Source of the DNA: Copromyces sp. CBS 386.78
Taxonomy: Eukaryota > Ascomycota > Sordariomycetes > Sordariales > Sordariaceae
Direction of reading: 5' to 3'
Assembly (NCBI GenBank): GCA_030685235.1
Contig: MU839151.1
Span: 169,417-233,416, forward strand
DNA: 64,000 nt
How positions within the stretch are numbered: the first letter of the stretch is position 1; the number at the start of each line of letters is the position of its first letter. Shown in pieces: positions 11,078-38,484 of this stretch. The notes below the pieces were generated by a model. It saw nothing but the letters and a program-made list of their open reading frames with translations. It ran no database searches and was not told where the DNA came from. Both the position numbers and the translations under genes were made by a program.

Positions 11078-11716
11078 TATGGTGATTCAAATTCGGTGTA
11101 GTCGTGGCAAAAAGACAAAAGAAAGGCGAAAGAGAAATGTAGTGATGATAGCGGAATGTTCTTGTTTGGATGTTGTTTGGAGGTTGCTCGCTACAAGCTG
11201 TGGATGTTGACTGCTGTAGTACTGAGCAATAGGCGTGCTACAGGGGTGTTTCCCAATTGACGTGTGCATGGAAGTGGCGTCAGAACTTTTAGCCCGTACC
11301 CGACCTTCCTTATCTTATCGGCTCAGTCATCCCGTCCGCACGTGCACCTATCATGATGAGTCCCGTTTAACGCATATCTGCCTGGGATAAGCGGTGAGAA
11401 GTATGCAATTGTGTAAGTGTAATTAATGGATCAGAGCGCGTATGTACTTTAGGAGTTCCGTTTGCTGCAGTTCGTTTGCATGGCACCATAAGATGATAAA
11501 GACTGACTGCCATACAATCCCTAGTATTGAATATTCAGCATGTGATTCTTCTATACAGAACTATGGTGCCTAGTCACCCAAGTTTAGCCCGGGTTTCTAG
11601 CATGTCTGGCTGGGTATCTTAATATGTCCCAAACGGGAGTTGACCATTACTACCCCGCTTTTCATGTCTCAAACACTTGCCTGCCGTGTCTTCGACTCAT
11701 TCTCCAACATGACGGC
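11078..11716. other. Intergenic: promoter of the G-patch gene and 3' end of the SDR gene
   Basis: Both flanking genes are on the minus strand. This 639-bp gap holds the G-patch gene promoter (right of 11077) and the 3' region of the SDR gene. I see no clear motif or ORF. Confidence 0.5.
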
Positions 11717-16351: not shown

Positions 16352-16424
16352 GCCCGGCTAGCTCAATCGGTAGAGCGTGAGACTCTTAATCTCAAGGTTG
16401 TGGGTTCGACCCCCACGTCGGGCT
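16352..16424 (+). tRNA. tRNA-Lys (anticodon CUU), intronless
   Basis: Full cloverleaf. Acceptor GCCCGGC pairs with GTCGGGC (16417-16423, one G-T pair). The D-arm is GAGC-bounded. The anticodon arm TGAGA-CTCTTAA-TCTCA carries CTT. The T-arm is GTGGG-TTCGACC-CCCAC. Internal A and B boxes are intact (GGTTCGAC). Positions 27-39 equal the primer site of the copia element at 1.3-6.8 kb. Confidence 0.96.
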
Positions 16425-16451
16425 CAATTCCCGATGTTCAACAACATCTTC

Positions 16452-19809: not shown

Positions 19810-20449
19810 ATGTCCGACCATCCGATTGTCCAGAAGAGTAAGTTGACATTCTCACCCTCGATTTCACCCTTGTCTCACTACTTTCTTGGTCATTGCTAAC
19901 CGTTTCATCTACAGTCAAGGCCTTTGACCCCGCGGAGCTCGCTTTCAGGCATGACAGGATTAAAATCGCCAGAGCCATAATTCTAGCTACCTTACGCCAG
20001 CCCTATGACCTCAAGGGGCTTAGGAACTTGAGGAAAATCGTCTGGGACTACAGGAGGTCCCTGGCAAAAAAGTGCCCGCGCGACGCTGCCTCTGCGCACT
20101 CCGAGGATATCGGTTATCGATACTGCTTGTGTCTCGGAAGTTCTGGACATCCTCGAAGGTGAGGCTACCTGCCTATGGCCTCCTTGTCTGTCCTATCTCT
20201 CTCTAACATGTAATGAAGCTCTGATGTACAAGATGGTAGACGAGCCTCACCAGTTGGTCAACAGCATCGAACCTGTTTTCGGAGAGCTGGTGGAGGTCGA
20301 GGAGAAGGATTCCTCTGGTAAGTACAAACATCTGAAGAGTGTAATAGCGGGGCGACTTCCTGAGAGATACTAACCTGTTTGTTACAGCTGATGTTCAGAA
20401 GGAGGTTGACGGGGAGGGCGACGAGGAGGAGGACTGGGTTCTTGTCTGA
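19810..20449 (+). CDS. Cluster family gene A (unknown function), apparent frameshift in the core exon
   Basis: Exons 19810-19837, 19915-20158, 20219-20317 and 20388-20449; introns have GTAAGT or GTGAGG donors. Exon 1 encodes MSDHPIVQK, which carries the family P-I-V-x-x-I motif across a phase-1 intron. The core exon begins IKAFDPAELAFRHDRIKIA and is helical. It is 244 nt long, while phase 1 on both sides demands a multiple of three (genes G and H have 246 nt in the corresponding stretch). The first part reads in one frame to about SAHSED. The last part reads in another (VSEVLDILEA), and that frame continues correctly into the last two exons (LMYKMVDEP, ending EEEDWVLV). This is therefore a single-base gain or two-base loss, either a real inactivation or a sequence error. 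About 143 residues. Function unknown. Confidence 0.65.
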
Positions 20450-21182
20450 GTTTTCAGTGAGAACCGAGCGAGGGGGTTCATGAATCATTTGGGCCTGACA
20501 GATATGGTTGCGATACGGCTTTCAGCCAAATGAAGAGTGTTACTTGCCAGCCGAACTAAACCATCGCGTTATGTCCGTTTCACTCCTTGCACCTTTTTAG
20601 TTGAAGCGTCGAAAGGTTGCCTTGAATTCTTGCTGCCCTTATTACATACATGCACTATCCCCCATTTTCACCTGCCATTGAACTCTGGTCATCTTGATCT
20701 CGTTTTGTGGCCATTGAATATCTAGCTACGTACGTTCGCCTCTTGGAATGTGAGAGCGATGAACAGCGCTTGTGGGCTGACACGGGCGCGGGGCAGATAT
20801 TCGAACTTCCTCTCCAACCAGCGGCCCCTCAAGTCATTCCAGTCACTTCGAAACGAACAGTTGCTGACTGGAGCTTACGACTACCAACCTAGGTACCTTA
20901 TCAGACCAGTTCATCCATAGAACACCTTCCATCTCCCCTAGTCAACACCCAGGACATATACCCTTTCATCCACTAACAAGCATCTCCAGTCGACGGCACA
21001 CTCTCTAGCGAATGTTTTTGCTATGTTTCGCGCTAACGCCCACCGTGGCGCCCCTCTTGATAGAGAGTGACAGAGTCTTCATAATCCAAAATGACCGATC
21101 TAATACTGAAACCGTTCTATACTCGTTGGATGAGGCAAAGATATCATGGCGGTCCATGGAGTTTGGAAAGGACGGGCTACGA
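20450..21182. other. Intergenic between convergent genes A and B
   Basis: The 3' regions of two convergent genes. Short open frames only. Nothing else seen. Confidence 0.45.
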
Positions 21183-22003
21183 TCAGGTCGGTGTCTGGGT
21201 AGACGAGCGAATGGACGAGCGGAGCTTGTTCCAGGGGAAGATCGTGTCGAAGACCTCTTGAAAGTTGATAAGTTAGTTCGAAGGTACGCTCCAGAGAATT
21301 TGTGTAGAGTACCTGTACGTACTCTGGGAGATGATCATATCACACTGGACTTTGCGGAGAGCGCGCAAAAACCTGCGCTGGAGTTCCAAGCGCTCGTAAG
21401 CTTTTCCACGTGGAGCATTGTGTGAGTACCCTGGCTTTCCTTTGATGACGTCGTCCAGATGCTCGAACCAGCTGACCGCTTGGGGGAAGATCTGGTCCGA
21501 GGTAGGGGCTTTTCCGCGCCTGGCGTCAACTATCTCTTGAACTAGGTAGAGTGTTTGTTAGAGACCTTGTGAAGAAGAAAAAGCTCGCCCAGCTTGGTGC
21601 GCGGGAACCGTGTGACTGGACTTACTGATGATATCGACAGGGATAATCGACATCAGACTGCGTACGCGTGCTGATGGAAGATGTAGGATAATTTCTGGGG
21701 TCGGTCAGTATAGGCATAGGCTAGGCGAAGCGGTGGAACACGCAAGACAGGAAGTACCGAATACTCACTTTTTCCCTTCACGGCAGTCTTTCCTCCAGCG
21801 ACGAAGTTCGGGTTGTCTTTGTCGGCCGGTTTAGCGATCGTTGCTGAAACCGGCTCCGGAAGGAGGAGCCCCGACTCTACGTCGGCGGCGACATTGGTCC
21901 CCGCGACGGCGACCTTCGCGTCGTCGACCACTACTTCTTCGGGCTTCTGGCTCTGCGCCTTCACAGCCGCGACGCTCGGTGTCATGGAACCGTTGCGTGC
22001 CAT
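21183..22003 (-). CDS. Cluster family gene B (unknown function), 190 residues
   Basis: Exons 22003-21769, 21670-21626, 21541-21323 and 21256-21183, all joined in phase 1 (total 573 nt, TGA at 21183). The start is the ATG at 22003. Exon 1 encodes 78 disordered residues rich in Ala, Val, Lys and Glu (e.g. SQKPEEVVVDDAK, then LLLPEPVSATI; gene C has the related LLLPEPVAHE). The small exon 2 ends SIIPVDII, the family P-V-x-x-I motif. The core exon begins IQEIVDARRGKAPTSDQIF and continues with predicted helices (SWFEHLDDVI, YERLELQRRFLRALRKV). The tail is basic and Ser/Thr-rich. There is no signal peptide and no recognised domain. It is divergent from gene C across a 533-bp shared upstream region. 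Function unknown. Confidence 0.75.
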
Positions 22004-22536
22004 AGTGAGAATAGGAAGTTGTGTCGGTGATGTGTTGGTTTGTGTTTGAGTCGGGTGCTGGGGGATCGAGGTATCTTGGAGGTGTTGGAGAGAAGTGAGG
22101 GTACCGACCGTGGTGTTGCGACCGCGAGCGGCGGGATAAATAAGGTAAGCGAACCTGAAAGGCGGGAGGAAGGGTAAGGAGTGAGTCGTAAAGGTTCTAT
22201 ATGAGGTGTTCGGTGAATTACCCCAGAGTCAACGGGTATGGAAGGCGTTTCGCACCATCAAGGTTCAATATGCCGTGAACACCCTTCCTGTTTGGCGACC
22301 GTGAAGTGTGAACAACCTGCTTGTAACCATTCATCGTCTCAGGTTCTCTCCAGGTTGACACCCACAGTTACATGTCATTTGTTGAGTATATAAAACACCG
22401 TCTACTCACCACGTTCTTCCACTTTCTCACACCTCAACACCATCCACCAGGAATAGCCTACCTGCTCACCCAACTTTTCTCCTCACCCTGAACACCAAGA
22501 AACCATCACCGGCTCCAGTCCAACAAGAGCGCAACC
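22004..22536. promoter_or_regulatory. Shared upstream region of divergent genes B and C
   Basis: 533 bp between two opposite ATGs. A TATATAAAA box at 22387-22395 serves gene C, with a pyrimidine-rich leader downstream. I see no clear TATA box toward gene B. The head-to-head layout would allow co-regulation. Confidence 0.55.
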
Positions 22537-23497
22537 ATGGTCCGCATCAAGGTGTCAACCAAACCCCCTCCGCACTGGACGACGCACTCTTCGGCCGCGG
22601 GGAAGCGCCAGCAGACGAAGAAGGGTCGACAGTCTAAGGTCGCCGAAGACGAGAGCTGGCTCCTCCTTCCTGAGCCAGTGGCACACGAAGCAGATTCGGA
22701 GGCTTTCAAGCCAACAGAAGGTAAGCGAGCATCCAAGTGTCGTTGATGGTGCTCATAGACTGATGCCGATGTCTCTAGTTGCCATTCCCCCGCCTGTTCC
22801 TGGCACACCCGTGCATGCGGCCATGGAGAAGATTCCTGTTGGCGAAATAAGTAAGTCGCCCACGTTGACTTCCAACCATTTTCTTCTCTGCCCTGCGGCA
22901 CCTTGAATCTTCGATTGCTAACCCTCCACCTCATACAACAGTCCAGGACTTGTACCATCACGGCTGTCCCCCCACGAACCAAGAACTCGTTGCCCACGCG
23001 GAAATTTTCGTGATATCAGCACGCAAGGCCGATGCCATGGCAGAGTATCACGATGCGGCTGAGGTTGTCCTGGACCACTTGGCCTGCACGATTATGAGCG
23101 GTTCTGGTAACGGGGAGATCCCTGTTGGCCATCAGTATGAGTTCCTCAGGAAGCAGCTCACTTTCATCGAGGCCATGATTGATATCTTTCTGGACCCTAA
23201 GAAGCTCGGTATGTTACCTGTCCATCCCCTATTCTCCCAAGCACATGGTGCCAGGGCCGCTTCAAAGGCGTCGTATCTCACTTGTACAGTCTTGCTGAAT
23301 CTTCTTTTCCGCCTCTAGTTGCCGCAAAGCCCACCACAGCAAAGCCCGTCACCGAGAAACCCGAGACCACAAAGCCCGCTCCAAAGCGTGTGCGAGAACT
23401 TCGAGAGGGCACCCGCAAGAGTAAGCGAATCCGCCTTTCAAAGGGAGCCAACGAGGATGATGAAATTTCCGCCAGACTCTCTCCCCAGGATTCGTGA
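22537..23497 (+). CDS. Cluster family gene C (unknown function), 233 residues
   Basis: Exons 22537-22720, 22779-22850, 22942-23208 and 23319-23497, all joined in phase 1 (702 nt in total). The start is the ATG at 22537. Residues 1-61 are basic and disordered (GKRQQTKKGRQSK, then LLLPEPVAHE as in gene B). Exon 2 ends MEKIPVGEI, the family motif. The core exon begins IQDLYHHGCPPTNQELVAH and holds several amphipathic helices (FVISARKADAMAEYHDAAEV, QYEFLRKQLTFIEAMIDIFL). The last exon is Lys/Thr/Pro-rich with a bipartite-like basic patch (PAPKRVRELREGTRKSKRIR), so nuclear targeting is possible. There is no known domain and no membrane segment. Confidence 0.78.
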
Positions 23498-24495
23498 GCA
23501 ACCGGCATTGCGGGCCTTTTTATTATTCCTAGCGGTATTTCCGAAGGCATCTGCCATGTTTTTCAACTAGATATACATGGTGCTGGCCTAGAAATGCGAC
23601 AGGTCGTCCGGGACGCGAGGCACACCGTGACCCCCAAAAGGGTTGAGCAGCGGGCTGATCGGCGGAGGGGGGGCGAGCTTGAAGGAAGTAGGGGTGCCGG
23701 GGCTTCAATCAGGGGAACATGTATGGAAGGAAGATGTACGGACCAAGGAACTCCCGAACAAACTTCGTGCTATTTTGCGCCGACAACCTGGAGACATCAG
23801 ACTGAACCTGATAGCATGAGATGGGATGGATAGTTGATATGTTATGAAGGACGAGGTATAAATGGTTTGATCGTGCCCAGTATATGAGATACTAGGTGAC
23901 AGTTGTACGAGGGATGAGAGAGGAGGAGTGATGGAACGATACGCGTAGTAGGAGAAGAAGTCTAATGACACCTGGTTAGCAGGCTGTATCGTGTAGTGAT
24001 ATGGTGCTTACATACCTAGGTAACGTACTATGTTCCCAATGACGACCATGAATGTGACCGTTCAATAGGCAGAGGTATTCATGCCAAGTAGAGGTCGCCA
24101 ATCCGATTTCCAGATAGAAGTGACTCCTGACGGCGTCAAGGGAAAGGACGAGGACATACCTAGGCAATGAGCAAAACCCAAGCCACTAACGAGGGATAGT
24201 GTAGTGAGTTCAAAATTTCCGTCTCATGATGTTGTGCCTTCTGGTGCGGACCAAATGAATTCTTCGTAAGACGCGGGCGATCCGTTTCACAAGCCACATT
24301 ATGTACATATTAAGGGGTATGGTAAAGCAAAAGGTGACAGTAGTTCTACATGTTATTCACGTATATCGTACAAAGGTAACAAAATTAGCTAGGCTCGGCA
24401 TCAAGCGTTTCTGTAGAGGTTGAATAGTATCAGCACAGCTCTTCGGAATATGACGAGGATGGACAGCAGCCGGGAAAAGCTTACAATGGCGAGAC
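23498..24495. other. Intergenic between convergent genes C and D
   Basis: The 3' regions of two convergent genes, about 1 kb. Only short frames. Nothing else recognised. Confidence 0.45.
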
Positions 24496-26138
24496 TTAAT
24501 TGACCAGCTCCTTGAGAAAGACTTGCTGCAGCTTAAGCTTCAAGACCTCCGACGCCAGGCCAATGCGGTCAGCGGGATTCTGCCGGTGAAGCTCATTGAT
24601 CCGGTCTACGATATCATTGCTCAGCGTGAGCGCCGCCTTCTTCACGGCTTGTTCCGTCTCATTCTCGTGGGCTCTAGCTAGGAACTCGCGAGCCTCCGCC
24701 GATATCATCTCAGGGGTCGGTGACTGAAGCCGCTCCAAACCCACAGCGAACATGCGGTCGACTGTAACGAGAGAAGTTAGTTGGAGTCCGTCCGTGTGTC
24801 TGGGGTAACTCAACATGATTGGAGTAGGGAAAACATCCGAAGAAATAGGAACTCACCAATCTCTGCGACAGGGACCAATTGAAGTGCGGCCTGGACACGT
24901 GCTCCGGGTTGCTCAGCAGTCGGCTTCGTAATCTTCTGGCTTTCCTGGGCGGCGCTGCGCACAGAGGCTCGCTCTGGAACGTTTCCGCCGGTAACAGGCT
25001 CTGATACCTTCGGGACTGCGTCCTCCACGCCTTCAGTTTCCGTGGCTCTACCAGTAACCAGGGTGGTGACCGGACCAGACACCGGTGTGGCTACTGCAGT
25101 AGATGCTGAAGCCGTTACCGGAGCAGAGGACGCAATAGATCCTGGAGCAGATGATGGGGCGTATGCCGGAGTGTATGTCGAATCGTAGGCCGGAGCGGTA
25201 GCCGGAGGATATGCTGAAGCTGTCACTAGGGCAGAGGACGGAGTGGTGACCGGAGCATATGCCTGAACATAAGCCGGAACCTTGGCGGTAGTATAGACGG
25301 CGGCAAGGTTTGCTGGGAGATTGGCCGGGGCGTATGCCTGGCCAGTGACCCAATCGTGTGTTAGAGGGCTTGCCGGAACGTACGACGGAGCAGTTACTGG
25401 AAAATATACCGGAGCGGCTGATGAACCGTATACCGGAGCGACTGACGAGCCATATGCCGGAGCGTCGATAGCCGTGGCCATAGTTGGGGAATTGACCGGG
25501 ATAGTGGCGGCTTGAAAGTTGGCGGGCTGCGAGATACGCGCACTGGGTTGTCGACCAACAGGCTCCACGGCCTTCTGGTTTTTCTCTGCAGTCATGGGCG
25601 CCGGAACTTGCTGTGGAACAATCTCATTGATGAAAGGCTCAAAGAGTGCCGGGTCCAACAATCCCATATCGTCATGCTCCTCTTCTTCAACGGTCATGTT
25701 GATAACGGTAGGCAAAACAGCGGCTAAAACAGGAGCTGGAGCACTGGCCGGAGCCATGGCCGGAGCAGATGCTGGAGTGACGAACCTCGCAGTGTCCGTG
25801 ATCATGGTTGTGGTGGTGGTGTCGGGGGTCGAAGCGGTGGGAGCAGCTCGCGCGGCAGCCCTAGTGATCCTCCTGGTTATGGGCGCGGTGGTGGCTCTCG
25901 GGGCTGCTCTCGTAGCAGGTCTGGCGGGGGCGCCGGTCGGAATGTTGGCTGGAGTGTTGGTGGGAATGGGGTCGGCCTGTGGAATCTCGCCAGCCTCTCT
26001 GCGACGCTCCAGCTCCTGTTGACGCTCGAGCTCCTTGACCCTGTGGCGCTCTTCGCGACGCTGGCGCCGGTGGGTGAGCTGGCTCCAGTCGGTAATCTCC
26101 TGACCGATGCGCTCCTTGACGTACTTTACACGACCCAT
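24496..26138 (-). CDS. Cluster family gene D: long Ala/Pro/Thr-rich protein with family core at C-terminus, 515 residues
   Basis: Exons 26138-24857 and 24761-24496, joined in phase 1 (1,548 nt). The start is the ATG at 26138. Residues 1-45 are strongly charged and probably coiled coil (RRQRREERHRVKELERQQ). Residues 50-420 are low-complexity Ala/Pro/Thr/Val/Tyr with degenerate short repeats such as APVYGSS and APAYDSTYTPAYAP. Exon 1 ends QLVPVAEI, the family motif. Exon 2 is the core, beginning VDRMFAVGLERLQSPTPEM, with helices (EAREFLARAHENETEQAVKK, then EVLKLKLQQVFLKELVN at the C-terminus). It is by far the longest family member. The architecture suggests the core is a portable C-terminal module on a long flexible arm. 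Function unknown. Confidence 0.72.
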
Positions 26139-28165
26139 ATTGGTTAGGTTTGATCCTTATTTGCGCGTAGGTAATCTGCTGGCTGTTGCGTGATTGGGAT
26201 CAGTGTACGATGCTGGGAAATTTCTTGGGAAGAGCTTGAAGTCTTTGGCGGTGCGATTAAAGATGAGAAGAAAATGCAAAATAGGAAAGGGTGGGACTAA
26301 CCTGTCCGCGTAGCCTCTGAGTGAATGTCAATTTGTCGGCAACTGCCCGGGCCGGCAACACTCGTGGACACTATCAGTTAGGAGAACCTTAGGGAGTCCT
26401 ACGTCCACTTTGCGTGAAAACTCCCTCACTGGAGGTAACCTCAGTCCGCACATACACTCTTGGGAAAAGTACGACTGACTAATATCAACCGTGACTGTGA
26501 TCAAAATTACAGTCAGATTCGTGCTGTCAACATATTAGTTGACAAATCTCTGGACCTGAAAGCGGCCCAACTCTTACATGGACACACTGAGTTAGCTATC
26601 CATCGTCGTCCCAGGTGCTATGTTTTATAGTCGTTGAGCCAGCTCAATTCCCGTGCGTGATCTTTAGAAACATATGGAGACAAAAATATCCACGACAATG
26701 ACAACGACAATGCTTTGCGCTGAAAGGCGGAGGAAAACCACGGGCACTACCTGTGTTTCCAACGACGGAGACAACATAACAGAAGCAAACACAGAGAAAG
26801 TTTCGCATGAGTTCCTGGATTGAGTACTTTCGGCTTGAATCCATGCTGCGTCGACGCTTGCGACCGGACGAATCGACCCCCGAGCCAACCTCCCTACCGC
26901 TCTTGCCTCCTGCTTGTTTCTGACTGTATTTCTCAGTCCGCATCACAGCCGCTTGGCTTTGACTCAGTCGCTGGGACGTCTGTACATCCGCTTGGAGTAC
27001 TTGCTGGCCAGTTAATGGGAGCGATAATCTCCTGTCCGCTCATTCTGCCGACTGCAGTGGTTGTCAGTGAATGGTACGGAAATGGCCAGATGAGACATGG
27101 AGAAATGGAAAGTAGCCGGGGGCCTGAGAGTGATATGAGGCGTACCCAACCCAGAAACAGGGACCGTCTGCCAGCTGCGTGGCGTCATACACCTGCAAAG
27201 GGCGCTGAGCGGGGACTGGCCGTAGCATGAATCCATTCATAGCTGACTGGCGTGGCCCGTATTTTTGCCATCGTCACCCGTTGTTCGCGGAACACTAACC
27301 TTAACGATGGTGGACACGGCGTGGGTTATTGAATTGCCCTCCACCGTGGTAACTGGGCCGTTGGCTGGACTGATGCCCGGAGTGCTGGAGGATCGAGAAA
27401 CACTGCCGGTCTAACGCTATTTCTGAACCGCTGGCCCTTCTCTTCCGGCTGCAGAGACAAATTCTGACTCCGATGGGACGTGATGTACTTGACGTGAACC
27501 ATACCTTCTGGCGCCGGTGTTTGTGCGAAGTGTGTTTATTACTGCGTAATCAAGAAGGAGAAAGACACGCTGTGTGCTGCTGCAAACTTTCCTATGGGTC
27601 AGGTAGATGAAGGTGTTGGTGGTTCTCAAGGAAGCAGAAATAAGTGTGGGAGCTGCAGGAAAAACTTTGGATCATACGGAACACTTGTCCTTAAAGGCTC
27701 ACGAGGAAAACATCTAACAAAACGGTAGAAAGCCAATTGGTCATCCACCCAAACAGGTGAACTTTCAACACTGCTCTCAACTGAATCCCAGAGCCACTTG
27801 CGCTAGCGAGTGGCCAGTCCATCTGTCTCAACCCCATACATTATTCCATGCATTCTCTCCCTCCTCGCCCACTCAAGTATCCCATTCATACATTCAGCCC
27901 CTCACTCCGTACCATAGCCCATATCCCCTAATCACCAACATCGTTACACAAGCATCCCATTTCCAAGAATAGAAAGAAGAAAAACAAGACAGCGGTCGTT
28001 TCGTACAGCATGTGAGACCGGCTTCGGTCGACAGGTTGAGAGTTCGAATCGTACTTCGACGCGCTGCCGCGGTAGCAGTGGCTATAGTCCGTTGGGCAGC
28101 CAAAGGGTGGCCTTGTTAGTTCGGACAAATTCGTAGGAAATTTCTAAAGACGTGTATTGTCAGCT
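26139..28165. other. Intergenic, 2 kb: gene D promoter and gene E 3' side
   Basis: It contains a minus-strand frame at 26943-26644 whose start (KYSQKQAGGKSGREVGSG, then GRKRRRSMDSSRKY) looks like the disordered N-termini of the cluster genes, but no core follows. It could be a decayed member. Other frames look random. Confidence 0.4.
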
Positions 28166-28869
28166 TCACTCCTGGCTATCAATCTCTCTTGCATTTATCG
28201 GAATCGTAGACATGGGAATCATACCGGCGCGAAGAGACCTCATGGCGTTGACAAACTGGGTGTTGGCCCTCAGTCTCTCGTACACTTTATTGGTCGGTGT
28301 TGTGCGCTCGAGAAGTGGTTCGAAATGGCCGATGAGGACTTTGGCAGAGAACCGGATGAGCGAAGCCGGATATTCTTGGCACACGTCGACGAAGAAGTAT
28401 GTGGCCGTCTCGATATCCTCTTTGGTCGGAATCATGCCGTCGTTTTCGGTGATCATGGTTATGCTCGATACCAACGGCAGAACCAGCCAATGTGGTGGTG
28501 TTCTCGGGCATTGGCTTTGCGTTGGTGATATCTTGACGAACTTGAATCTGCTCGCCATGAGGAGCGATGCCTGCGGTGCCACGGACGCGGGCAAGGCGTT
28601 CTTCATCCTGTCTTCTTCGGAGCTGGAAAAGCCGATCACTGGCGTGCGCCACAATTTCAGGGAAACTGGCTTGGACGTGGTTAGCGGCGATGGGCTTCTC
28701 TTTCTGGTTTGCCGAGTTCGTCATTAGATGCAAATAGTGTTGCGGTACCCGCGTCTGTGTTACTGCTCGACGTGCGTGGTAGTAGGGTAGAGAGACTCTT
28801 CGGAGGGTGTGCGAAGTTCGGTAATCTCGAGAAGCGGTCTTGACAAGATGAAGAAGAATGGGCGAGCAT
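28166..28869 (-). CDS. Cluster family gene E (unknown function), 206 residues
   Basis: Exons 28869-28749 and 28665-28166, joined in phase 1 through an 83-bp intron (donor GTACCG, branch GCTAAC, acceptor CCAG). The start is the ATG at 28869 (MLAHSSSSCQDRFSRLPNFA). The motif and core are in one exon here: LVLPLVSSI is followed by TMITENDGMIPTKEDIETA, which lines up with gene I (REITQNSTVIPSHDKIAR). Helical segments follow (TYFFVDVCQEYPASLIRFSA, YERLRANTQFVNAMRSLR). An in-frame ATG at 28724 lies inside the inferred intron and would read another frame, so I prefer the spliced model. It is divergent from gene F. Function unknown. Confidence 0.65.
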
Positions 28870-29635
28870 TGAGGAAGCAGACTGCCAGGTGGCGAGCCTG
28901 AAGCGGGGTGGCAGAGTTCAATGAATTGGAAGACAGGAAGGAGCGGCCGGTTTCTGTCTGGCGACCCCGGCACCTTCCTTCACCCCAACCTCACTTCCGT
29001 CTCCACTCCCCGTACACAGGATTCTGACTGAATACGCGCTGGGAGCTGAACACGTCCGTAACATGCTTGTAATATTCCGTTTCGTCTGAAGGAGAGGAAA
29101 GCCGCGGACGACCGCCAGTGGAAGACCACCGAGAGGGGCTGGGGAAAAACAAAGATTTGCCGACATGTTGGCCACGACCAAGACAAACCAACAACTAGGC
29201 ACCTTAAATTTAGGAGATTAGATATATACGGTTCAAGATGCCCCAAGATTGCAATGAATTGAAGTTTCGAAAGAGGAACTTACAAGCCCACTGCGAAATG
29301 GGTCACGGCCCTCACCATGTGGCCCTCTTATATCGGTAGCAGTGGATGCTTGCTGCTCTAGTTTCGTTTGCCTGCCACATAGAAATCGGTTAGCATCTGG
29401 TCTGGGACCTGACAGCCCGCCACATCGAACGGAGCGGAGGTTTGGGAGACAACCAGTGAAGGACAGTTACCCCTCCAAGGTCCTTTCTTTTCTGTGGGCT
29501 TCCCTTCTTTCCTGGTACTTATAGGCACACCTCGATTCCGTCCTTTGCCTTCCCACAAAAACCAACCACCATCAGCAAGCTTCTTTGCAAATCATAACAC
29601 ACCTTCGTCACTCACCTCAACAATCAACCGTAGCC
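28870..29635. promoter_or_regulatory. Shared upstream region of divergent genes E and F
   Basis: 766 bp between opposite ATGs, the second head-to-head pair in the cluster. The region before gene F ends in a pyrimidine/A-rich leader (caaccaccatcagcaagc) like those of genes A and C. Confidence 0.5.
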
Positions 29636-30421
29636 ATGGAGAACGCAGACAACACAGAGTCCAATGCTCCTGAATACCGTCGCATGACGCGCGGCATGAG
29701 GGCCGCGGGCGGAGTGATCCCTCCGGCTGCTCCCCGCGTGAAGAAGCCCAAAGTAACAAGGATCAAACGAGAGGATCCTGAGGACGGTGATGGCAAGTCT
29801 CAGGGTTCCCAGCAACCGTCAGCCCAGCCAAAGAAGGAGAAGGGTGAGTATCAATGTCAGCTTGTGGTTCCCCGTGCAGTCCTCCGACTTCAGTGATTCT
29901 AGTGGCTAACACGCATCATGTTCTGTAGCACCTTCGTTTGACTCCAGCGACCCGTGGACTTGCGGTCCCAATGACGTTCCTGCCATCGACAACATTGGTG
30001 AGTGTGCCCCCACGACATCCTTTATGTACCTTGGTCCACGGTGTTGACACTTCTCGACAGTCCGTCTCCTTACTAGGGACTACACCAAGACCCCTCGGGA
30101 TGATGAGCTCATCGAGGCCGCCCACAAGTACAAGTGGCGCGGCATCAGGAAGCACACGCTTCGTGAGCTCAAAACCATTACCGTAACCGAGCAGCGCCAG
30201 GCTCGTAAGAAGCTGAAGGAGAACCCCAGGGACGTGCATCAGCAAATCAAGCTCAATTTGCTGAAGGCCATTACTTCACACATTAGAAGTAAGTGCCCTC
30301 CATCAAGGAAAACAGTCAGAGATTTATGGAACAAGTACGCTAACGGGCTGTCCTAGGCGAGTACTCCGACTCAATGTATGCAAAGTGGAGGGAGGGCCGT
30401 GACAAGGTCAGGATGAATTAG
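29636..30421 (+). CDS. Cluster family gene F (unknown function), 189 residues
   Basis: Exons 29636-29843, 29929-29997, 30061-30288 and 30357-30421, all joined in phase 1 (570 nt, stop TAG). Residues 1-69 are basic and disordered (MTRGMRAAGG, PRVKKPKVTRIKRED). Exon 2 is 69 nt and ends NDVPAIDNI, the family motif. The core exon begins VRLLTRDYTKTPRDDELIE, closely resembling gene H (IRELTSNYTAYPTDDPMRD), and continues as charged helices (YKWRGIRKHTLRELKTITV, QQIKLNLLKAITSHIR). The last exon encodes a short charged tail (MYAKWREGRDKVRMN). The high Arg/Lys content suggests a nuclear or nucleic-acid-binding role, but no motif proves it. Confidence 0.78.
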
Positions 30422-31666
30422 GGGAATAGAGCACATTGGCAGAGCATCTAGGCATTGATGTAACTTTGAACGTCTCTGAAGCAGTGATCCCACTTGTAAA
30501 CATATTCCTGCTTCTTTCACACTTGATTTCCATGCACGTAAGTCAGGTTGTTGACGGTGGAGGTGACACTTGAGCGTATGTGAAATGATATTTTTCTGTG
30601 TGTTTGTCATGGGTTTCCACCTTCTCTGCACCATCACTGGAGGAATGGTTCCCTAAGACGCTTCGTCTAACCCGTGGGCCATGGTTAAACGAGTGTGTTG
30701 AATGTTCTCGGAACAGAACTTGTTGCTTGTATGACGATGAACGAACAGAACAGAGGAACTGGCCGAAGACCTGTGGTGACGCGGTCCAGGATGGCCACTG
30801 CTACTAAGTCCGGTTGCGTTGTTGGCGGCGATGAGATGGCGACCTTGCAAGGAAAACCAGGCAAAGCAGAGGGATATGCCTCTACTGAGGTCGGTGATCC
30901 AAAGGGGTCAACTATAGAGGCAAATCATGCCACTCCCGTAAGCGGGAAAAGTGAGCTTTTGAGGTGTGATGCAGGAAAGTCGCAGATGAGAAGCGGGACG
31001 TTGGACGGCGATGGCTTTAACAGTGCAGGGTAGGTGATGGATTTGGGTTTGCAAAATGAACCAAGACGATTTCAGGCGAGACTAGGTGTGGAGTCTCGGC
31101 CGCACTCGGCGCCAGGTGAATTGATGGATATGTGAGGAGCGACGATGGGGACAAGGCAAACAGATGAAAAATCTAACAAAGCAAGGAAAGCCTCCTAGAC
31201 TCATTTTGGCATGCTTCAACATAATATGTTGGCGTAGTGCATTCGGGATTCCTCTGTTATGTTCCAGATTCCTCGCCAACTGCCAAGCCCGACAGGGAGA
31301 ATCCTCCACTTGAAGGGCCCACATCGGTTCGTAAAGAGTTCGGATGAAGTTGGAAAGAACGCCAAGACGGCCCCACCCGGAAGGTCCGGCGTCTCCACAA
31401 CACCGGCGAAGTTGGAGAATGTGCCGCCGGAGCTCAGGCGAACGGTGCCTCACAAAAGCTCACGGTAGACGACCGAGATGCTGATCGAACGACTTGAACA
31501 TGATGGACCGATTTGTTGTTTTCCGATCGCTCTGGTATTTAGTGCGGCAAATGAGGATTTGGTAGAGTGAAACACATCTTAAGAAGGTTTGGAAGTAGGA
31601 GCCTGTTGCGAGCTGGAATGAGGAGTGTTTGGAAGCAACCGAAAGCAAAAAACGTTTAGGCTAAGG
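30422..31666. other. Intergenic before the nested transposons
   Basis: 1.2 kb. A plus-strand frame at 31259-31468 (SSDEVGKNAKTAPPGRSGVS, then ENVPPELRRTVPHKSS) resembles a disordered N-terminal exon and could be a displaced 5' exon of gene G across the transposons. This is not proven. A frame at 30695-31033 shows no family motif. Confidence 0.4.
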
Positions 31667-31668
31667 TA

Positions 31669-34600
31669 CTCGTCTGGGCTAGAAACGCCCTCTGGGACCC
31701 CAAGCGAAGCTTGGGGTCTGGTGCACGGATTCGCGAAAGTGAATGGATTCGCGAAATTTTCGGTACATCCACCCCCATATAAATTAGTGCTGTAACCATG
31801 TCACCCTGTTTTTCGAAAAGTGCTGCTTTATGCAAAAAAACGGTGGTACATTGATTTGCTAACAAATTGCAGGGTGGGACATGTACCTAATTTTTTTCGC
31901 GAATCCATTCACTTTCGCGAATCCGTGCACTACTCGTCTGGGCTAGAAACGCCCTCTGGAGACCCATTGCTTGCAATGAGTCTGGCAGATTGATTCGCGA
32001 ATGCAGATTGATTCGCGAAAATTTCGGTACTTCCCCTACTATATAAATTAGCGCTATAACTATATTACACAGTTTTTTTAAAAGTCGTCGTATATATGCA
32101 TATAATATCGCTCAACCCAATAAATATTATTATATTAGACTAGTAATTTAGTAAAGTAGGGTCAATATTATTATTACTAATATTACTACTTTCTAGCATA
32201 GTATTTTGAATAGGGTCCTCCTCTCCCTCCTCTTCTATTATAATACTAGAATTATTTAGGTTTCCTATTACCTAATTTCCCTTATTATTACTAGGTAGTA
32301 GCTAATTATAGCCGGGCCTATAGTAATACGTACCCTTATTGTTCTTACGTAGTATTTCTATTTACTCCTCCTATATTAACCCAATTTGCTCCTTTACTTC
32401 CTCCTCTTTAAGGGGGGGAAGTTTATCCTTATTAAATTTAATTTCTAACTCTATATTAGAAACGAAGGCGGTAATAACCTCTTCTATAATAATTATAGTA
32501 CGAAGGTTATAAATCTATAGTATAATAGGCTTCAGTCTATTACTAAGCGGTACCTAGTATAAAAGTAGAATAATATCCTTCTTTAGTCTACCTAACCGAA
32601 TTATTTCTATTTGAATAGCTACCTTTTTCGCCTCTTAATAGAATCCCTAGCGCTCCCGCCACATAGATTTATACTATTCGAATAGACTATTCTAATTTTT
32701 AATCTTATTTAAAATTAAGTTGACCGCTATATTCTACTTAGTACGAAATTTACTAGTAAGGCGTAATTCTACCCTCTTATTTTAGGCTTTACTTTATTAT
32801 TTAGTTTTATACGTACTAAATTACTTTCATAGAGTAATCCGTTTAGTATTAAGATCTTTCTTACGTTGGCGCAGCTTCTTTTTAGTATATAATTTAATTT
32901 TGTAATACTCGTTTACTATTATACGAAGACGAATATTACTAACTTTAATAGGACTAGTACGAGTAATTAGACGGTTAATTATATAGTTTTCTCTTTATAC
33001 TACCTCCTCTAGTTACCTCCTCTTCTTAAACTATTATACTTCTATATTAGTAACCCCTATTAACGCGATTGCCTTAATAGATTTATTCCTTTTAAATATA
33101 ATATATTTAGTAATAGGGCTGAGGGGAGTCTTCGTAATAGTAGATTTAAATAACCCTTATTAAACGTATATATTATACTTTAAAATCGTAATTATATTGA
33201 GAGGGGGGGTTATTACTTTTGCCTAATCTTTCTTAGAGTATAACGCTAGTAGGGGTATTAAAATATTATAATTAGTATAAAGATCGAGGGCGCTAAATTA
33301 TTTAAGACGTTTACGTAATATTAGATTTATAGGGCCCTTCTCCTTTTTTTATACTTATAATTAGGTTCGATTATCTATAATCTCCTTTAATTTAAACTAA
33401 CTTTATTCGTTTTTAGTTATAATATATCCTTTCTTTTTCTTTAAAAAATTAAGGTTAATTATTAAAATAAGGGGATTTTATAATTTATCGAATACAATAG
33501 AAAGTTTATATAGATAGAGACTATACTTTACCTATACGGATTATATAATTAATTATTTAAAAAATTTACTTCGAATATAAAATAGCCTATTTAAGAAAAA
33601 GAATTTAATATACTCTATATTACTATATATTATCGTTTTAAAGATATTTTTTTAATAATAGTGCTTATAAATTTAAAATACCCTAACGTTGAGAAATTGA
33701 AGGATATAGGTCGAATGAGGGGGGAGGAGAAAGAGGATAACATTGTAACGGCAGTATCGTTTATAAAATTCGATAGTATAATAATTATTATAATTATTTA
33801 GTAGTAAAAAACGTTTCTCTTCTTTATTAAGGGGACGAGAATATTCCTCCTAGTAATTAAATTAATTGAGGGTAAATTGGTTATTTATATAACCGTTAGG
33901 AGAAGTGGTAATAATAGAATAATTATTAAAATGGTTATTAATATAATTTTCGCTAATATTAATATTAGGAAGGATAATGAAAGTAAGTACTATATAGCTA
34001 GAAGTAGAAATATATTTAATAATTATTATTAATTTACGTACGTTTGGGTTTAGGGTATATATAATTGGTATTTTAATATAAGACTATATAATATAGGATT
34101 TAAATTGTATACCGATTTTAAACCTAGATTTATCCTTATTCTATATATTATTTAGTATAATACCGTTTTTATTAACCGTCTTTTTCTATAGTTTATATAC
34201 TTTTTCTACGCTTATTCGAAATTGGATTGCTTTGTATACTTATACTATCGACTTTATATATACGGATTTAAATTTTGACCGAATTATAAATGTATGAATT
34301 TATTGCCGGTTAATATCGATATTACGGCTATTAGTACGGGTAAATTACTTCGTTGCGCGTATAATCTCTTAATTTGTAATTTTATATTTTAATTAAAATA
34401 TTTAGTTAATAAATAACGGTAATTATAAAGGATCGACGATAATTAACGACTACGGGTATTAACTGAGAAATATCTACGTATTAACCTAAATATATAACGC
34501 GAATTCTTCCTCTTTAATTAATTTTTTTACCCCCGTATTTTGCGACTGCAATTTAGCACCCTTCGAACGATTAACGGTAGTATAGTAATTAGCGCTATAA

Positions 34601-35224
34601 ATTTTTGCCGCGGTAGTAATTGTTTTAAACTTTCTATTTTTTAAGGTATTAATAATTAAATTAATACGTTATTTATTCGAAAAGCCGGCGAAAAAGTTAT
34701 TAATGGGCTTTATTATATACGATTTAACGGTAAAGTAATTAGATTATCGATAAATTAAGTATTAAACTTTGGGTATAAAATAGTAATATACGAATATATT
34801 AAACGGTTAATAATAATTAAATTGCCCGCTGCTTATACTCCGTACGCGATTTTAAAAAGCGGTGAGCTAGTTAGTCGAATTTATATTAGTTATATTATTT
34901 ATATTATTTTATAATAAATATTAGAGGATTTATAATACCCCCGGATTAGTAAGTTGAGTGTTTTAGCAGTTCGTGATGGATTTATACGGTCGTGTAAGTC
35001 GGGTTGCTTATGGTAGGTATGTAAAAAAACGGTGGTATATCGATTTGCTAACAAAATGTAGGGTTATACTATGTACCGAATTTTTTTCGCGAATTAATCT
35101 ACATTCGCGATTCAATCTACCTGACCCCGTGCTGGCACGGGGTCAGACTGAGGCGTTTCTAGCCCTGACGAGTAGACCCTAAGCTTCGCTTGGGGTCCCA
35201 GAGGGCGTTTCTAGCCTAGACGAG
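31669..35224. mobile_element. Short TA-flanked MITE (about 314 bp) split by a larger relative
   Basis: Outer ends at 31669-31718 and 35175-35224 are inverted copies (50 bp, 2 mismatches), starting CTCGTCTGGGCTAGAAACGC, with TA on both outer sides (31667-31668, 35225-35226). Each end carries a small palindrome (arm GACCCCAAGC). The inverted repeat continues inward as GTGCACGGATTCGCGAAAGT (31721) and its mirror ending at 31930, so almost the whole MITE is TIR. At a TA in its right arm the 3.2-kb element 31933-35172 has inserted. Without that insert it is about 314 bp. Confidence 0.8.
31933..35172 (-). mobile_element. 3.24-kb RIP-mutated TIR DNA transposon, TA target duplication, unidentified transposase
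   Basis: The ends start CTCGTCTGGGCTAGAAACGC (left) and CTCGTCAGGGCTAGAAACGC (right, reverse complement), flanked by TA at 31931-31932 and 35173-35174. Inside lie end-specific palindromes (left arm AGACCCATTGC, right arm CTGACCCCGTGC), then paired ATTCGCGAA motifs. The edges of its interior (e.g. ACGGTGGTA, GATTTGCTAACAAA near 35.05 kb) match the interior of the small MITE, which is thus a deletion derivative of this family. 32.1-35.0 kb is AT-rich and stop-filled. A minus-strand frame near 32.6-32.3 kb reads KLPPLKEEEVKEQIGLI before stops, suggesting the gene ran on the minus strand. A TA duplication suggests the Tc1/mariner/pogo group, but I could not find a DDE signature. Confidence 0.75.
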
Positions 35225-35332
35225 TAGCGAGAGAGTTTGGAAATTTTGAAAAAAAAACCAAAAAAAAAACCGACCTCTTGCAGTTTCTGTGGGTGCTGCT
35301 TGCTTAGTCAACCAGCTGCAGGTGCTGTGGGC

Positions 35333-35810
35333 ATGCAGCAAGCGCCGGTGATGCCTGCCGGTTGTGGTTCGATCGCTTTACTACCAGTTATTGCGGCGAC
35401 GGACGACGGCCGAAGAATGCCTGATGACAACGCCATTGACGCGGCCGCCCGCAGCGCTATTCGTCAAGGCGAACAATTGATGAACGACTTCTCAATCTCC
35501 ACGATGGAGGCTATCGCCCAGGGCGCTCGCGGTCAACTTTCTTACGCAAATTCAATGCGAAAATTGGGTATGCGAGGTCTAGATTGGGACGCCAAGAGGG
35601 ATTTTCTTGCAATGATTATTCACTTGGCGGATAGTATGTTCTTTGACCGGATTCGCCTCGTGTGGATCAAAATCCCCAAGCTTCCCATGCATTGGTGACA
35701 ACGCGCTAACTCCCTCTACAGGTGAGGTAGACGTCCTGACGTATGAGGACCTACGGAAGCGCACAAATCCTGATGGGCCGGAAGGCTATTTGTTCGTTCC
35801 GGTTCCATAA
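35333..35810 (+). CDS. Cluster family gene G (unknown function), 5' end next to a transposon
   Basis: Exons 35333-35633 and 35722-35810, joined in phase 1, giving 129 residues from the ATG at 35333. The core starts near LLPVIAATDDGRRMPDDNAI and continues helically (AARSAIRQGEQLMNDFSIST, DAKRDFLAMIIHLADS). The tail is EVDVLTYEDLRKRTNPDG and ends FVPVP. The alternative is that the core begins at an acceptor (ctaccag, 35387, again phase 1), with the real N-terminal exon lost or beyond the transposon whose end lies at 35226, only about 105 bp upstream. In that model the 35388-35633 segment is 246 nt, exactly the length of gene H's core exon. Expression may be altered by the insertion. Confidence 0.6.
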
Positions 35811-36477
35811 GCCGCGGTAGACCGTCCTTCAACTCTGGGTCATCGTCGCGATGGCCGCGGGGATGTCGACCACCGCCGGATGTGGAAGTGATTGATATCG
35901 AGGACAACTAGGCCGGCAAAGCTCTCAGAATGACGACTCAGTCGGTGTCACGTCTTACGTGCCTGTTCATTTTCAAGGAAAATATGCTGTTGTCCCTGTG
36001 AAAAGTGTCCCATATGGATCCAAGGGATTCAAACGGGCTTGCTTGTCAACTTTCGCGGCTTGTTGATGTTTCCACGAACTGAATGTTTTGTCCATCCTTC
36101 CGCCTTCCTTGCTTGCAGTTTCCATTTCCTCTTTGTCAGAGCCGTATGTCCAGCTTGCCTCGACTTATCTTCAAGCTCCATGGGGTTGCTTGGTAGACAA
36201 GTGTCTGCAAGGAATACACGGAGGCGTTGGCGTACGGACGGCATGCAAGTGTAATTGGCTCCCATAATTTACACGCTCTCAATCTTAACAGTGGTATAAG
36301 GACTCATCTTCCCCTTGCTCACAACATGTTCTGGGGCTAAGATCACCGTTCAATCCTGTATTGACAGCATGATAGTATCCGTCTCTTGACGAACTCTATT
36401 TCCTTTCCACCACAACACACCATCGTTCAACCATCATTGGCACATTGTGTCAGGCAAGACATGACGAGGAGGAAGCA
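35811..36477. other. Intergenic between genes G and H, gene H promoter
   Basis: 667 bp. A TATAAGG sequence at about 36296 lies some 180 bp before the gene H start. A 10-codon upstream ORF (ATG 36461) overlaps the chosen gene H ATG. No other gene is seen. Confidence 0.45.
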
Positions 36478-37208
36478 ATGGAGAGGTTGAAGACCAGCAG
36501 CCAAAGGAGCACCGCCCAACCCCAGCAGTCTCAACCGGCCTCCTCAACCCAGTATTCCAGTGAGTGCGATTGTCTCTTTGACGCTTCCAACTACCTTTAT
36601 ACTTTCTTCCTTCACGTACCGGCCCTTCAGTCTCTAACATTCCCCTAGTTCCAAGCACCGCGGAACAATCGCGCCCTCTCTCTGATCTTGAAATAGCGCC
36701 CAGATACATTGACATTGACATAATGAGTGAGTTTACATCTTCAGTATCTCGTTTCCTCACCCCCCAAACTATCCAGCCAAGTTGCCAGACTTCCAATTAC
36801 ATCCACCTATTGGGTACCCCTACTAACTGCATCTCCCGCTGCAACGTTTGAACAGTCCGCGAGTTAACGTCAAACTACACCGCTTACCCCACCGATGACC
36901 CAATGAGGGACAAAGCACACACCACTATCGAACGAGCTTTAATGCTCCATCACGCTTGCCCAGATGGTAGAGATGGCATTATGAAGGCTATACTCGTTCT
37001 TCATGGTCACTATCATTTTATGTGGACTGTGAGTGAGTGGAAGGGCAGGAATTTGGAATTGAGGGTGAGGTTGCTATCCGGGATGGCAAAAATGCTACAT
37101 CGTGAGTCTCGCGCCATTTTGGATTTGTGCGGACTGTTAGTAACTGACTTGAAAGGATGGGGTAAGGAGGACTTGGTCGACCATGAGTCACCTTCAGTGG
37201 AATCTTAA
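36478..37208 (+). CDS. Cluster family gene H (unknown function), 152 residues
   Basis: Exons 36478-36559, 36649-36726, 36856-37101 and 37156-37208, all joined in phase 1 (459 nt). I chose the ATG at 36478 because the earlier ATG (36461) meets a stop after nine codons. Exon 1 is Ser/Gln/Pro-rich and disordered. Exon 2 ends PRYIDIDIM, the family motif without its Pro. The core exon (246 nt) begins IRELTSNYTAYPTDDPMRD and is rich in His and hydrophobic residues (MLHHACPDGRDGIMKAILVL, HGHYHFMWTVSEWKGRNLEL). Intron 3 has donor GTGAGT and branch TAACTGAC, and joins to the tail WGKEDLVDHESPSVES. Unspliced, that intron would also stay open, so intron retention gives a longer variant. Function unknown. 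Confidence 0.75.
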
Positions 37209-37795
37209 GGTAAGACTCTTCTTGTCTCGCTTTGTGCTTTGGCATATACCCCCAACGTGCATTCGTTAGCTCTTCCCATTTTGGCCCGTTCCCCTCCCTT
37301 GGTTCTCTCTTTCTTACCCCTGAAGAACTCATTCTCTCATTCAACAAAACCAATCCCAAGTTCTTCCAAAAATGTTCATACAAGCCCGTTGACTTGCAGG
37401 TGGGGACTTCGGGACGCGAACTCCAGGTTTTGGTTGCCAAGACAGTCACGACTCCGGTTGAATCTTTCAGTCTTATCGATAGACACGGTGGTGTCAAGTC
37501 CTTCAGCGCGACGGCGACGTGCACAGTACACTTTAGATGGGACGGAATGTCATTTTACCCTTCACTCGCTGCCTAGGAGTCACGTTTGGATGCACCTCAC
37601 AGGACATGACTGGACACCGATGAACAGTGCCAGTCACCCCGCAAGCTTTTGCCAACCGCCGGCCCCTTAACAGCTGCAAAAGGCGATCTCTGGATTCCAG
37701 TACTCAGCTATCTCCTCTTTTCCTGGCGTCTTTGATATCAACTCAGGCCCAACCATCATCGTCCAAAACAAATCACCGGTCAAAGCCGTTTCACC
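37209..37795. other. Intergenic between genes H and I
   Basis: 587 bp. Several overlapping open frames on both strands (up to 168 codons, minus) but without domain or splice support. It includes the gene I promoter. Confidence 0.45.
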
Positions 37796-38484
37796 ATGTC
37801 TACCCCTCGTCATCCTCGTGAGGCCGGCCCCAGAACGTCTCGCCCCGGACCGAGTAAGTCTTGCTGGGCTCCAAGCACCTTCAAGCACACCAGGCAATGA
37901 GCGCTCGCTAACATATCTTTACTACTCATAGGAGCCCCTCCCGCGCCCCGCCATACCCTGCTGCCGATGGCATTCAGGATCATCCCAATCAACCGGATCA
38001 GTATGTTACACCGAGCCAAACCACCTCCTACCACTCGCCTGACCATCATTTGCGGCTCCCACTGACCTTTTCCTTCTCGCCTTCTTATGCAAATAGCCCG
38101 CGAAATCACCCAAAACAGCACCGTCATCCCCTCCCACGACAAGATCGCACGCGAGGCCCGCTACGTCGTCCAGGGTGCCTTGGAGAAAGGAAATTTCCCC
38201 GAGACAATCGAGATGGCGCTCACCAAGCTGCTCTCAAATTTCAATTACCTCTGGGGTTGGGGCCGCTATCAGGATAAGCAGGTGGGTGTTACTGTTGGAC
38301 TGCTGAATGAGATGATGGCTGTTTTGAAGGGTATGTAGGCCACTTCCTTCACCTTGACCCCTGCCGGTCGTTGACGCTCGTGTTGAACGTCGTGCTTCCA
38401 CTTACTTGTCACGGTTGTAAGCTAACTGACGTATTTGGCATAGAGCATCAGCGAAAGTTGGAGGAGGATGGTCCGAAGAATTGA
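37796..38484 (+). CDS. Cluster family gene I (unknown function), 133 residues
   Basis: Exons 37796-37853, 37932-38000, 38097-38330 and 38444-38484, all joined in phase 1 (402 nt). The start is the ATG at 37796. Exon 1 is short, Arg/Pro-rich and disordered. Exon 2 is 69 nt, as in gene F, and ends FRIIPINRI, a clear family motif. The core exon begins TREITQNSTVIPSHDKIARE and continues as helices (RYVVQGALEKGNFPETIEMA, NYLWGWGRYQDKQVGVTVGL, NEMMAVLK). The last exon encodes EHQRKLEEDGPKN. It is the smallest complete member and probably the best model of the minimal module. Function unknown. Confidence 0.8.

What the first reader, a model, noticed from the sequence alone, without database searches (positions are those of the whole stretch)
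19810..38484. Nine-gene cluster of an apparently undescribed small-protein family
Genes A (19.8), B (21.2), C (22.5), D (24.5), E (28.2), F (29.6), G (35.3), H (36.5) and I (37.8 kb) share one plan. A variable disordered N-terminus comes first, then a short motif close to P-[IVL]-x-x-[IM] (HPIVQKI, IIPVDII, KIPVGEI, LVPVAEI, VPAIDNI, IIPINRI; YIDIDIM and LLPVIAA are looser). A helical core follows, starting [VIT]-x-x-hydrophobic with a P-[TSR]-x-[DE] or H-D step 6-12 residues later (e.g. REITQNSTVIPSHDKI in I, MITENDGMIPTKEDI in E, RELTSNYTAYPTDDP in H, RLLTRDYTKTPRDDE in F). The tail is short and charged. Sequence identity is very low, which suggests old or fast divergence. I know of no named domain with this pattern. 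The homology claim is inference from motif, order and gene structure.
Basis: partly seen in the sequence, partly recalled or inferred. Interest (0 to 1): 0.92.

Follow-up and report, generated by a model that had tools for sequence, protein, structure and literature searches.

The report
Fungal cluster of diverged helical proteins
Seven small neighbouring genes in a relative of the mould Neurospora look unrelated by ordinary comparison but appear to be very diverged copies of one gene for a five-helix protein domain without a name, so some so-called orphan genes may be hidden relatives of each other.

Summary
The window is the last 64 kb of a contig of Copromyces sp. CBS 386.78 (Sordariaceae). 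Seven of the nine genes (B, C, D, E, F, H, I) are one family; G is inconclusive; A has no profile support.

Evidence: in B, C, D, F, H and I all 15 introns are phase 1, and one interrupts the codon right after the P-[VI]-x-x-I stretch. Profile comparisons beat all 120 column shuffles for 8 of 21 pairs and link clades BCDE and FHI. AlphaFold models of one member per clade, from alignments sharing no sequence, give the same five-helix layout. E here lacks the stretch and is out of frame; its Pseudoneurospora relative carries it.

Of 25 proteins found, 22 are named, all Sordariaceae (six from this genome). Linked genes in Sordaria, Neurospora and Pseudoneurospora indicate an old array. No Pfam, NCBIfam, PDB-sequence or significant fold match was found.

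Most likely they are soluble intracellular adaptors: a constant helical bundle with gene-specific disordered tails, diverging fast in a genome with repeat-mutated DNA. That function is inference. The domain family appears undescribed, but clusters of lineage-specific genes are a known phenomenon in Neurospora.

The parts
21183..22003 (-). Gene B, four exons (22003-21769, 21694-21626, 21541-21323, tail from 21256); head to head with C; shares E-S-x-LLLPEP in exon 1 with C
   Evidence: (P0022); linked to E and C by hhalign
22537..23497 (+). Gene C, four exons, introns all phase 1; orthologues in Neurospora, Sordaria and Pseudoneurospora
24496..26138 (-). Gene D, two exons, long proline/alanine-rich first exon, LVPVAEI at the phase-1 intron
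   Evidence: linked to C, E and I by hhalign
28169..28724 (-). Gene E, probably broken here: N-terminal part (28724-28461) and core (28459-28169) lie in different frames; 45 residues with the P-V-x-x-I stretch that the Pseudoneurospora relative has are missing
   Evidence: linked to C, B and D by hhalign
29636..30421 (+). Gene F, four exons, introns all phase 1, VPAIDNI
   Evidence: (P0012 identical); linked to H
31667..35226 (.). AT-rich element with 53-nt inverted end repeats (96% complementary) and a repeat-mutation signature inside, splitting the array between F and G/H
35333..35810 (+). G: possible 5'-truncated member beside the inserted element; inconclusive
36478..37208 (+). Gene H, YIDIDIM, introns phase 1; linked to I and F
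   Evidence: (P0010 identical)
37796..38484 (+). Gene I, four exons, introns all phase 1, IIPINRI; orthologues in S. macrospora, N. crassa and N. hispaniola
   Evidence: (P0011 identical)
19810..20449 (+).

Best explanation
Supported by the tests here: seven genes (B, C, D, E, F, H, I) descend from one ancestor by local duplication and encode a domain predicted as five helices (8, 8, 17, 20-21 and 22-26 residues) in which P-[VI]-x-x-I opens the second short helix; six measured members lack a strongly hydrophobic stretch; the array is older than the split of Copromyces, Pseudoneurospora, Neurospora and Sordaria. Inferred: they are soluble intracellular, partly nuclear, adaptor proteins. The helical bundle is the constant part; the disordered first exon carries gene-specific short binding motifs (RRMTRGM-x-AAGG in F, DESWLLLPEP in C), so each copy binds a different partner. 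They diverged fast because near-identical repeats are mutated in these fungi and because their partners probably change quickly, as in non-self recognition or conflict with selfish DNA.
For: Phase 1 in 15 of 15 introns and matching exon sizes. hhalign: 8 of 21 pairs among the seven beat 120 of 120 shuffles, and they connect all seven; merged BCDE against FHI scores 26.5, shuffles at most 15.2, and with the motif cut off 18.2 against at most 15.6. Helix starts offset by 45-48 residues throughout, lengths 8/8, 8/8, 17/17, 21/20, 26/22 (I/C), in models from disjoint alignments. Pseudoneurospora E carries FIPVEDIV at the expected place. Linked orthologues: SMACR_07488/07490, N0V85_007438/007439, equal contig lengths 12668 and 1711460. 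The part before the core has 69-86% disorder-promoting residues against 53-68% in the core; NLS-like basic runs in 5 of 7, of these B only in its core. The cores bear no repeat-mutation signature while the element beside them does.
Against: Function rests on no experiment or expression data. 13 of 21 pairs among the seven had 1 to 107 of 120 shuffles as high. Against single members the motif-trimmed BCDE profile had 3, 1 and 15 of 120 shuffles as high for H, I and F. C fails as left-out member (rank 30); F passes weakly, E-value 1.5. Only 5 of 19 inner tree branches are starred and long branches meet. H and I lack NLS-like runs. B lacks about one helix of the core in the alignment. The C orthologue of Neurospora sp. 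IMI 360204 is on another contig (9186 bases) than its E and F. The kilobase 21001-22000 is borderline for repeat mutation (composite +0.07). Selection could not be measured.
Confidence: 0.5

Rival explanations
1. Two or more unrelated small-gene families (BCDE and FHI) sit side by side and resemble each other only because both are helical and use common splice patterns.
For: The link between the clades is much weaker than within them: motif-trimmed score 18.2 against shuffle maximum 15.6, hhalign probability 4%; most cross pairs do not beat all shuffles; no significant fold match.
Against: Phase-1 introns at the same place in both clades; merged profiles beat 120 of 120 shuffles with and without the motif; I with D likewise; helix-for-helix agreement of the two models.
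Confidence: 0.1
2. Non-self recognition or meiotic-conflict genes: paralogues that kill or block partners differing at the locus, kept variable by selection.
For: Lineage-restricted diverged array with uneven species hits; a fragment resembling by eye the start of HET-type proteins at 57.1 kb; Neurospora lineage-specific genes cluster with HET-domain genes (PMC10684091, abstract and sections 8, 13, 16 read).
Against: No HET or other known domain in the members scanned; the 57 kb fragment has no Pfam hit; no allele data; conserved genes lie between.
Confidence: 0.15
3. Ordinary lineage-specific genes tied to sexual development, without conflict, drifting because loosely constrained.
For: Of 367 knockout strains of Neurospora LSGs crossed, two Neurospora LSGs and one Neurospora-Sordaria LSG showed arrested perithecium development (PMC10684091, passage from section 14); orthologues kept across genera.
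Against: No record found for these genes under the tags searched; tail motifs within C and F are well kept, against pure drift.
Confidence: 0.2
4. Decaying pseudogene array mis-annotated as genes.
For: E is out of frame and an inserted element lies beside G; A and G brought back no annotated protein.
Against: F, H and I are intact and equal deposited proteins; C, F and I have relatives in other genera along the core; no repeat-mutation signature in the cores.
Confidence: 0.05

Closest known systems
Clustered lineage-specific genes (LSGs) of Neurospora (PMC10684091: abstract, sections 8, 13, 16 and find passages read)
   Same: Short proteins mostly without Pfam domain, mostly with introns, in clusters, paralogues often adjacent
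   Different: The paper removes genes with hits outside Neurospora from its 670; these genes reach Sordaria, Copromyces and Pseudoneurospora, and here adjacent orphans are shown to share one domain. Whether this locus is in its tables was not seen (supplements not readable).
Histone-fold proteins (H2A, NF-YC; signature recalled)
   Same: P-[VIL]-x-x-[IL]-x-x-[LM] opens a helix in both (recalled signature)
   Different: Models show five helices of 8, 8, 17, 20-21 and 22-26 residues, not one long central helix between two short ones
Designed four-helix protein H4C2R (PDB 7dgy)

Membership tests
Proposed new family (this cluster) | Phase-1 intron in the codon right after the P-[VI]-x-x-I stretch | tested here: met
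   B, C, D, F, H (looser stretch) and I; E lacks the stretch here
Proposed new family (this cluster) | Profile link to at least one other member above all 120 shuffles | tested here: met
   Each of B, C, D, E, F, H, I
Proposed new family (this cluster) | A and G also linked by profile | tested here: inconclusive
   A: 78 of 120 shuffles as high against the merged profile; G: 6 of 120 against all seven, 0 of 120 against motif-trimmed FHI, 31 of 120 against BCDE
Proposed new family (this cluster) | Same predicted helix layout in both clades | tested here: met
   (one member modelled per clade; predictions only)
Neurospora LSG sets | Homologues only within a narrow lineage | tested here: met
   22 of 25 hit proteins named, all Copromyces, Pseudoneurospora, Neurospora or Sordaria; 3 unnamed; the search needs shared 5-residue words, so remote relatives would be missed
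Neurospora LSG sets | Position near telomere and HET-domain genes | tested here: inconclusive
   Window is a contig end; HET-like fragment at 57.1 kb without Pfam hit
HET-domain proteins | Pfam HET domain | tested here: not met
   8 cores and 20 full-length members or relatives scanned
Histone fold | Short helix, about 27-residue helix, short helix (recalled) | tested here: not met
   Predicted layout differs; prediction only
Membrane proteins | Strongly hydrophobic stretch | tested here: not met
   Highest 19-residue hydropathy 0.26-1.55 in B, C, D, F, H and I; E not measured; no signal-peptide program available

The most novel reading that the evidence does not exclude
The array is an old set of tandem copies in fungi that mutate repeats, where repeat mutation itself may have driven copies apart until they read as unrelated orphans; the copies now form a set of paralogue-specific recognition adaptors in genome or self/non-self conflict, and many Neurospora 'orphan' clusters may be hidden families of this kind.
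Probability: 0.15. Interest if true: 0.8.

Novelty: new member of a known kind. Interest (0 to 1): 0.5.

Why it matters
Lineage-specific genes are defined by failure of similarity searches and often discussed as new genes. Here adjacent orphans, 14-25% identical to the core of gene I, join as one family by intron phase, profiles and predicted fold, which favours divergence over de novo birth at this locus and gives a way to test other orphan clusters. It also poses the question how a tandem family persists in fungi whose genomes mutate repeats.

Tried and rejected

Further copies elsewhere: the splice-motif pattern gave 14 hits in the genome, 4 of them B, C, D and I, against 9 hits of the reversed pattern. 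Of the other 10 loci, 8 had no open frame behind an acceptor and 2 (L003, L011) had one unlike the core; the family profiles gave nothing better than E 0.73 in those 10. Single-protein searches with I, an E relative, a C relative, H, D, F and B gave only the cluster plus one row at E 0.65 in a 1647-aa frame. Such searches are blind to paralogues this distant (I does not find H), and the pattern missed F and H, so other clusters are not excluded.

Shared promoter words: none beyond random sets (B and C share upstream DNA). A frame break in A, which I had noted by eye (first notebook entry), did not bear out: the frame of its first exon stays open through the core. Paper searches for locus tags found nothing; general searches listed 4, 0, 6, 3 and 8 (of 23) papers, none with a title naming this family; the library holds only openly licensed PMC papers.
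Full report
Identity of the window. The genome has 49.8 Mb in 273 contigs. AT-rich blocks with the signature of repeat-induced mutation lie at about 1-6, 32-35, 52-57 and 59-64 kb; the cores of B-I have none, though kilobase 21001-22000 is borderline.

Gene models. C, F and I have four exons with three phase-1 introns, B likewise (third intron taken from the deposited protein), H two phase-1 introns and D one: 15 of 15 in phase 1. The models of F, H and I equal the deposited proteins; C agrees over 174 of 226 residues and B over the 174 residues of my three-exon model. The small exon before the core measures 69, 72, 69, 78 and 69 nt in B, C, F, H and I; in D it is fused to exon 1. The intron splits the codon following the P-[VI]-x-x-I stretch. 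The deposited models are probably predictions too, so this is agreement of two callers, not RNA evidence. A also has a phase-1 intron after HPIVQK, with an open frame behind it.

Homology. Eight cores aligned gave 14-25% identity to the first, gene I. Homologue searches with C, with joined F+H+I cores and with joined A+B+E+G cores returned 9, 12 and 4 proteins, 6 of the 25 from this genome; 22 are named and all are from Copromyces, Pseudoneurospora, Neurospora or Sordaria. The A and G pieces brought back nothing, not even an annotated protein of this genome; D was in no such search. hhalign over all 36 pairs of the nine genes, each with 120 column shuffles: C-D, C-E, I-H, E-B, F-H, C-B, E-D and I-D exceeded every shuffle; the other 13 pairs among the seven and all 15 pairs with A or G did not. 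Because the motif was chosen by eye, I cut it off in most of 15 further comparisons: the six strongest pairs again beat all shuffles; BCDE against FHI scored 18.2 against a maximum of 15.6; BCDE against single H, I and F had 3, 1 and 15 of 120 shuffles as high. Leave-one-out profiles against 3020 forward and reversed frames of the window ranked B, D, E, F, H and I first among non-training frames (E-values 0.00036, 0.0029, 0.12, 1.5, 0.00046, 0.00079) but C only 30th. The unrooted tree separates BCDE from FHI (96/93) and keeps F (99/95), I (93/93) and E (fork 93/86) as groups spanning genera; C is not resolved as one clade, 5 of 19 inner branches are starred and long branches meet.

A natural test. 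Gene E in the window lacks the stretch. Its relative in Pseudoneurospora, 91% identical over the matched part of the query, has FIPVEDIV before the core, in 45 residues that are missing here; in the window the two flanking parts lie one base apart in different frames. So E belongs to the family, and the copy here is probably broken.

Fold. AlphaFold2 of a C orthologue (P0003) and of I (P0011), from alignments that share no sequence, gave mean pLDDT 68.8 and 77.7. By ten-residue blocks it is 80-95 over residues 71-170 of C (71 for the last helix end) and 73-93 over 31-130 of I (56 for 21-30, where the first helix begins). Helices: 76-83, 86-93, 102-118, 122-141, 151-172 and 29-36, 39-46, 56-72, 77-97, 103-128. 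Starts are offset by 47, 47, 46, 45 and 48, the motif proline by 47. The kept model of I is the best of five; the other four average 60.9-67.1. Both models have the same first row in the second structural look, 7dgy, but no match stands out: Foldseek E 0.61 and 0.45 at best.

Age and synteny. F and I orthologues in S. macrospora bear tags SMACR_07488 and 07490; E and F orthologues in Neurospora sp. IMI 360204 are N0V85_007438 and 007439, while its C is N0V85_008333 on another, short contig; C, E and F orthologues in Pseudoneurospora are on contigs of the same length, 12668; C and I orthologues in N. hispaniola on contigs of the same length, 1711460. That these are the same contigs is inferred from the lengths. 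The S. macrospora genome paper gives about 90% nucleotide identity for coding regions with N. crassa (PMC2851567, passages); here I orthologues are 74-79%, F 58-95% and C 43-62% (P0002: 95% over 58 residues) identical in protein to the Copromyces cores.

How it may work. No hydrophobic stretch suggests membrane insertion in six members. The first exons are rich in disorder-promoting residues and bear gene-specific conserved runs, for example DESWLLLPEP in C with ESGLLLPEP in B, and RRMTRGM-x-AAGG in F. The residues shared by all are mainly helix starts and hydrophobic positions (inference from the alignments). This fits a constant bundle with variable binding tails, an adaptor. Nuclear location is suggested by basic runs outside the core of C, D, E and F only (pattern recalled). 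That repeat mutation acts on duplicated DNA is stated in PMC10684091 section 16; that it drove this divergence is untested.

Known or not. No Pfam or NCBIfam family in the proteins scanned, no convincing PDB relative by sequence, and no paper found under the tags. Clusters of lineage-specific genes with adjacent paralogues are described for N. crassa (PMC10684091), so the phenomenon is known; the domain family is, as far as I searched, not named.

Noticed in passing
31667-35226: AT-rich element with 53-nt inverted ends (96% complementary) beginning and ending in TA, a Tc1/mariner-like arrangement (recalled); its interior bears the repeat-mutation signature.
   Followed up: partly
57140-57532 and 58041-58610: Two open frames between AT-rich blocks; the first resembles by eye the start of HET-type proteins (CDAC...HLCSIL) but no Pfam family matched either.
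   Followed up: partly
21183-23497: B and C are head to head 533 bp apart and share an exon-1 run E-S-x-LLLPEP, as if from an inverted duplication.
   Followed up: partly
8174-11086: Tuftelin-interacting protein homologue (GCFC, TIP_N, G-patch) on one side of the cluster; polysaccharide deacetylase, methyltransferase, MFS and short-chain dehydrogenase genes on the other.
   Followed up: partly
16352-16425: tRNA-Lys (CTT).
   Followed up: no
24857-26138: Exon 1 of D is a long run of loose alanine-proline-valine-tyrosine units, by eye unlike the first exons of the other members.
   Followed up: no
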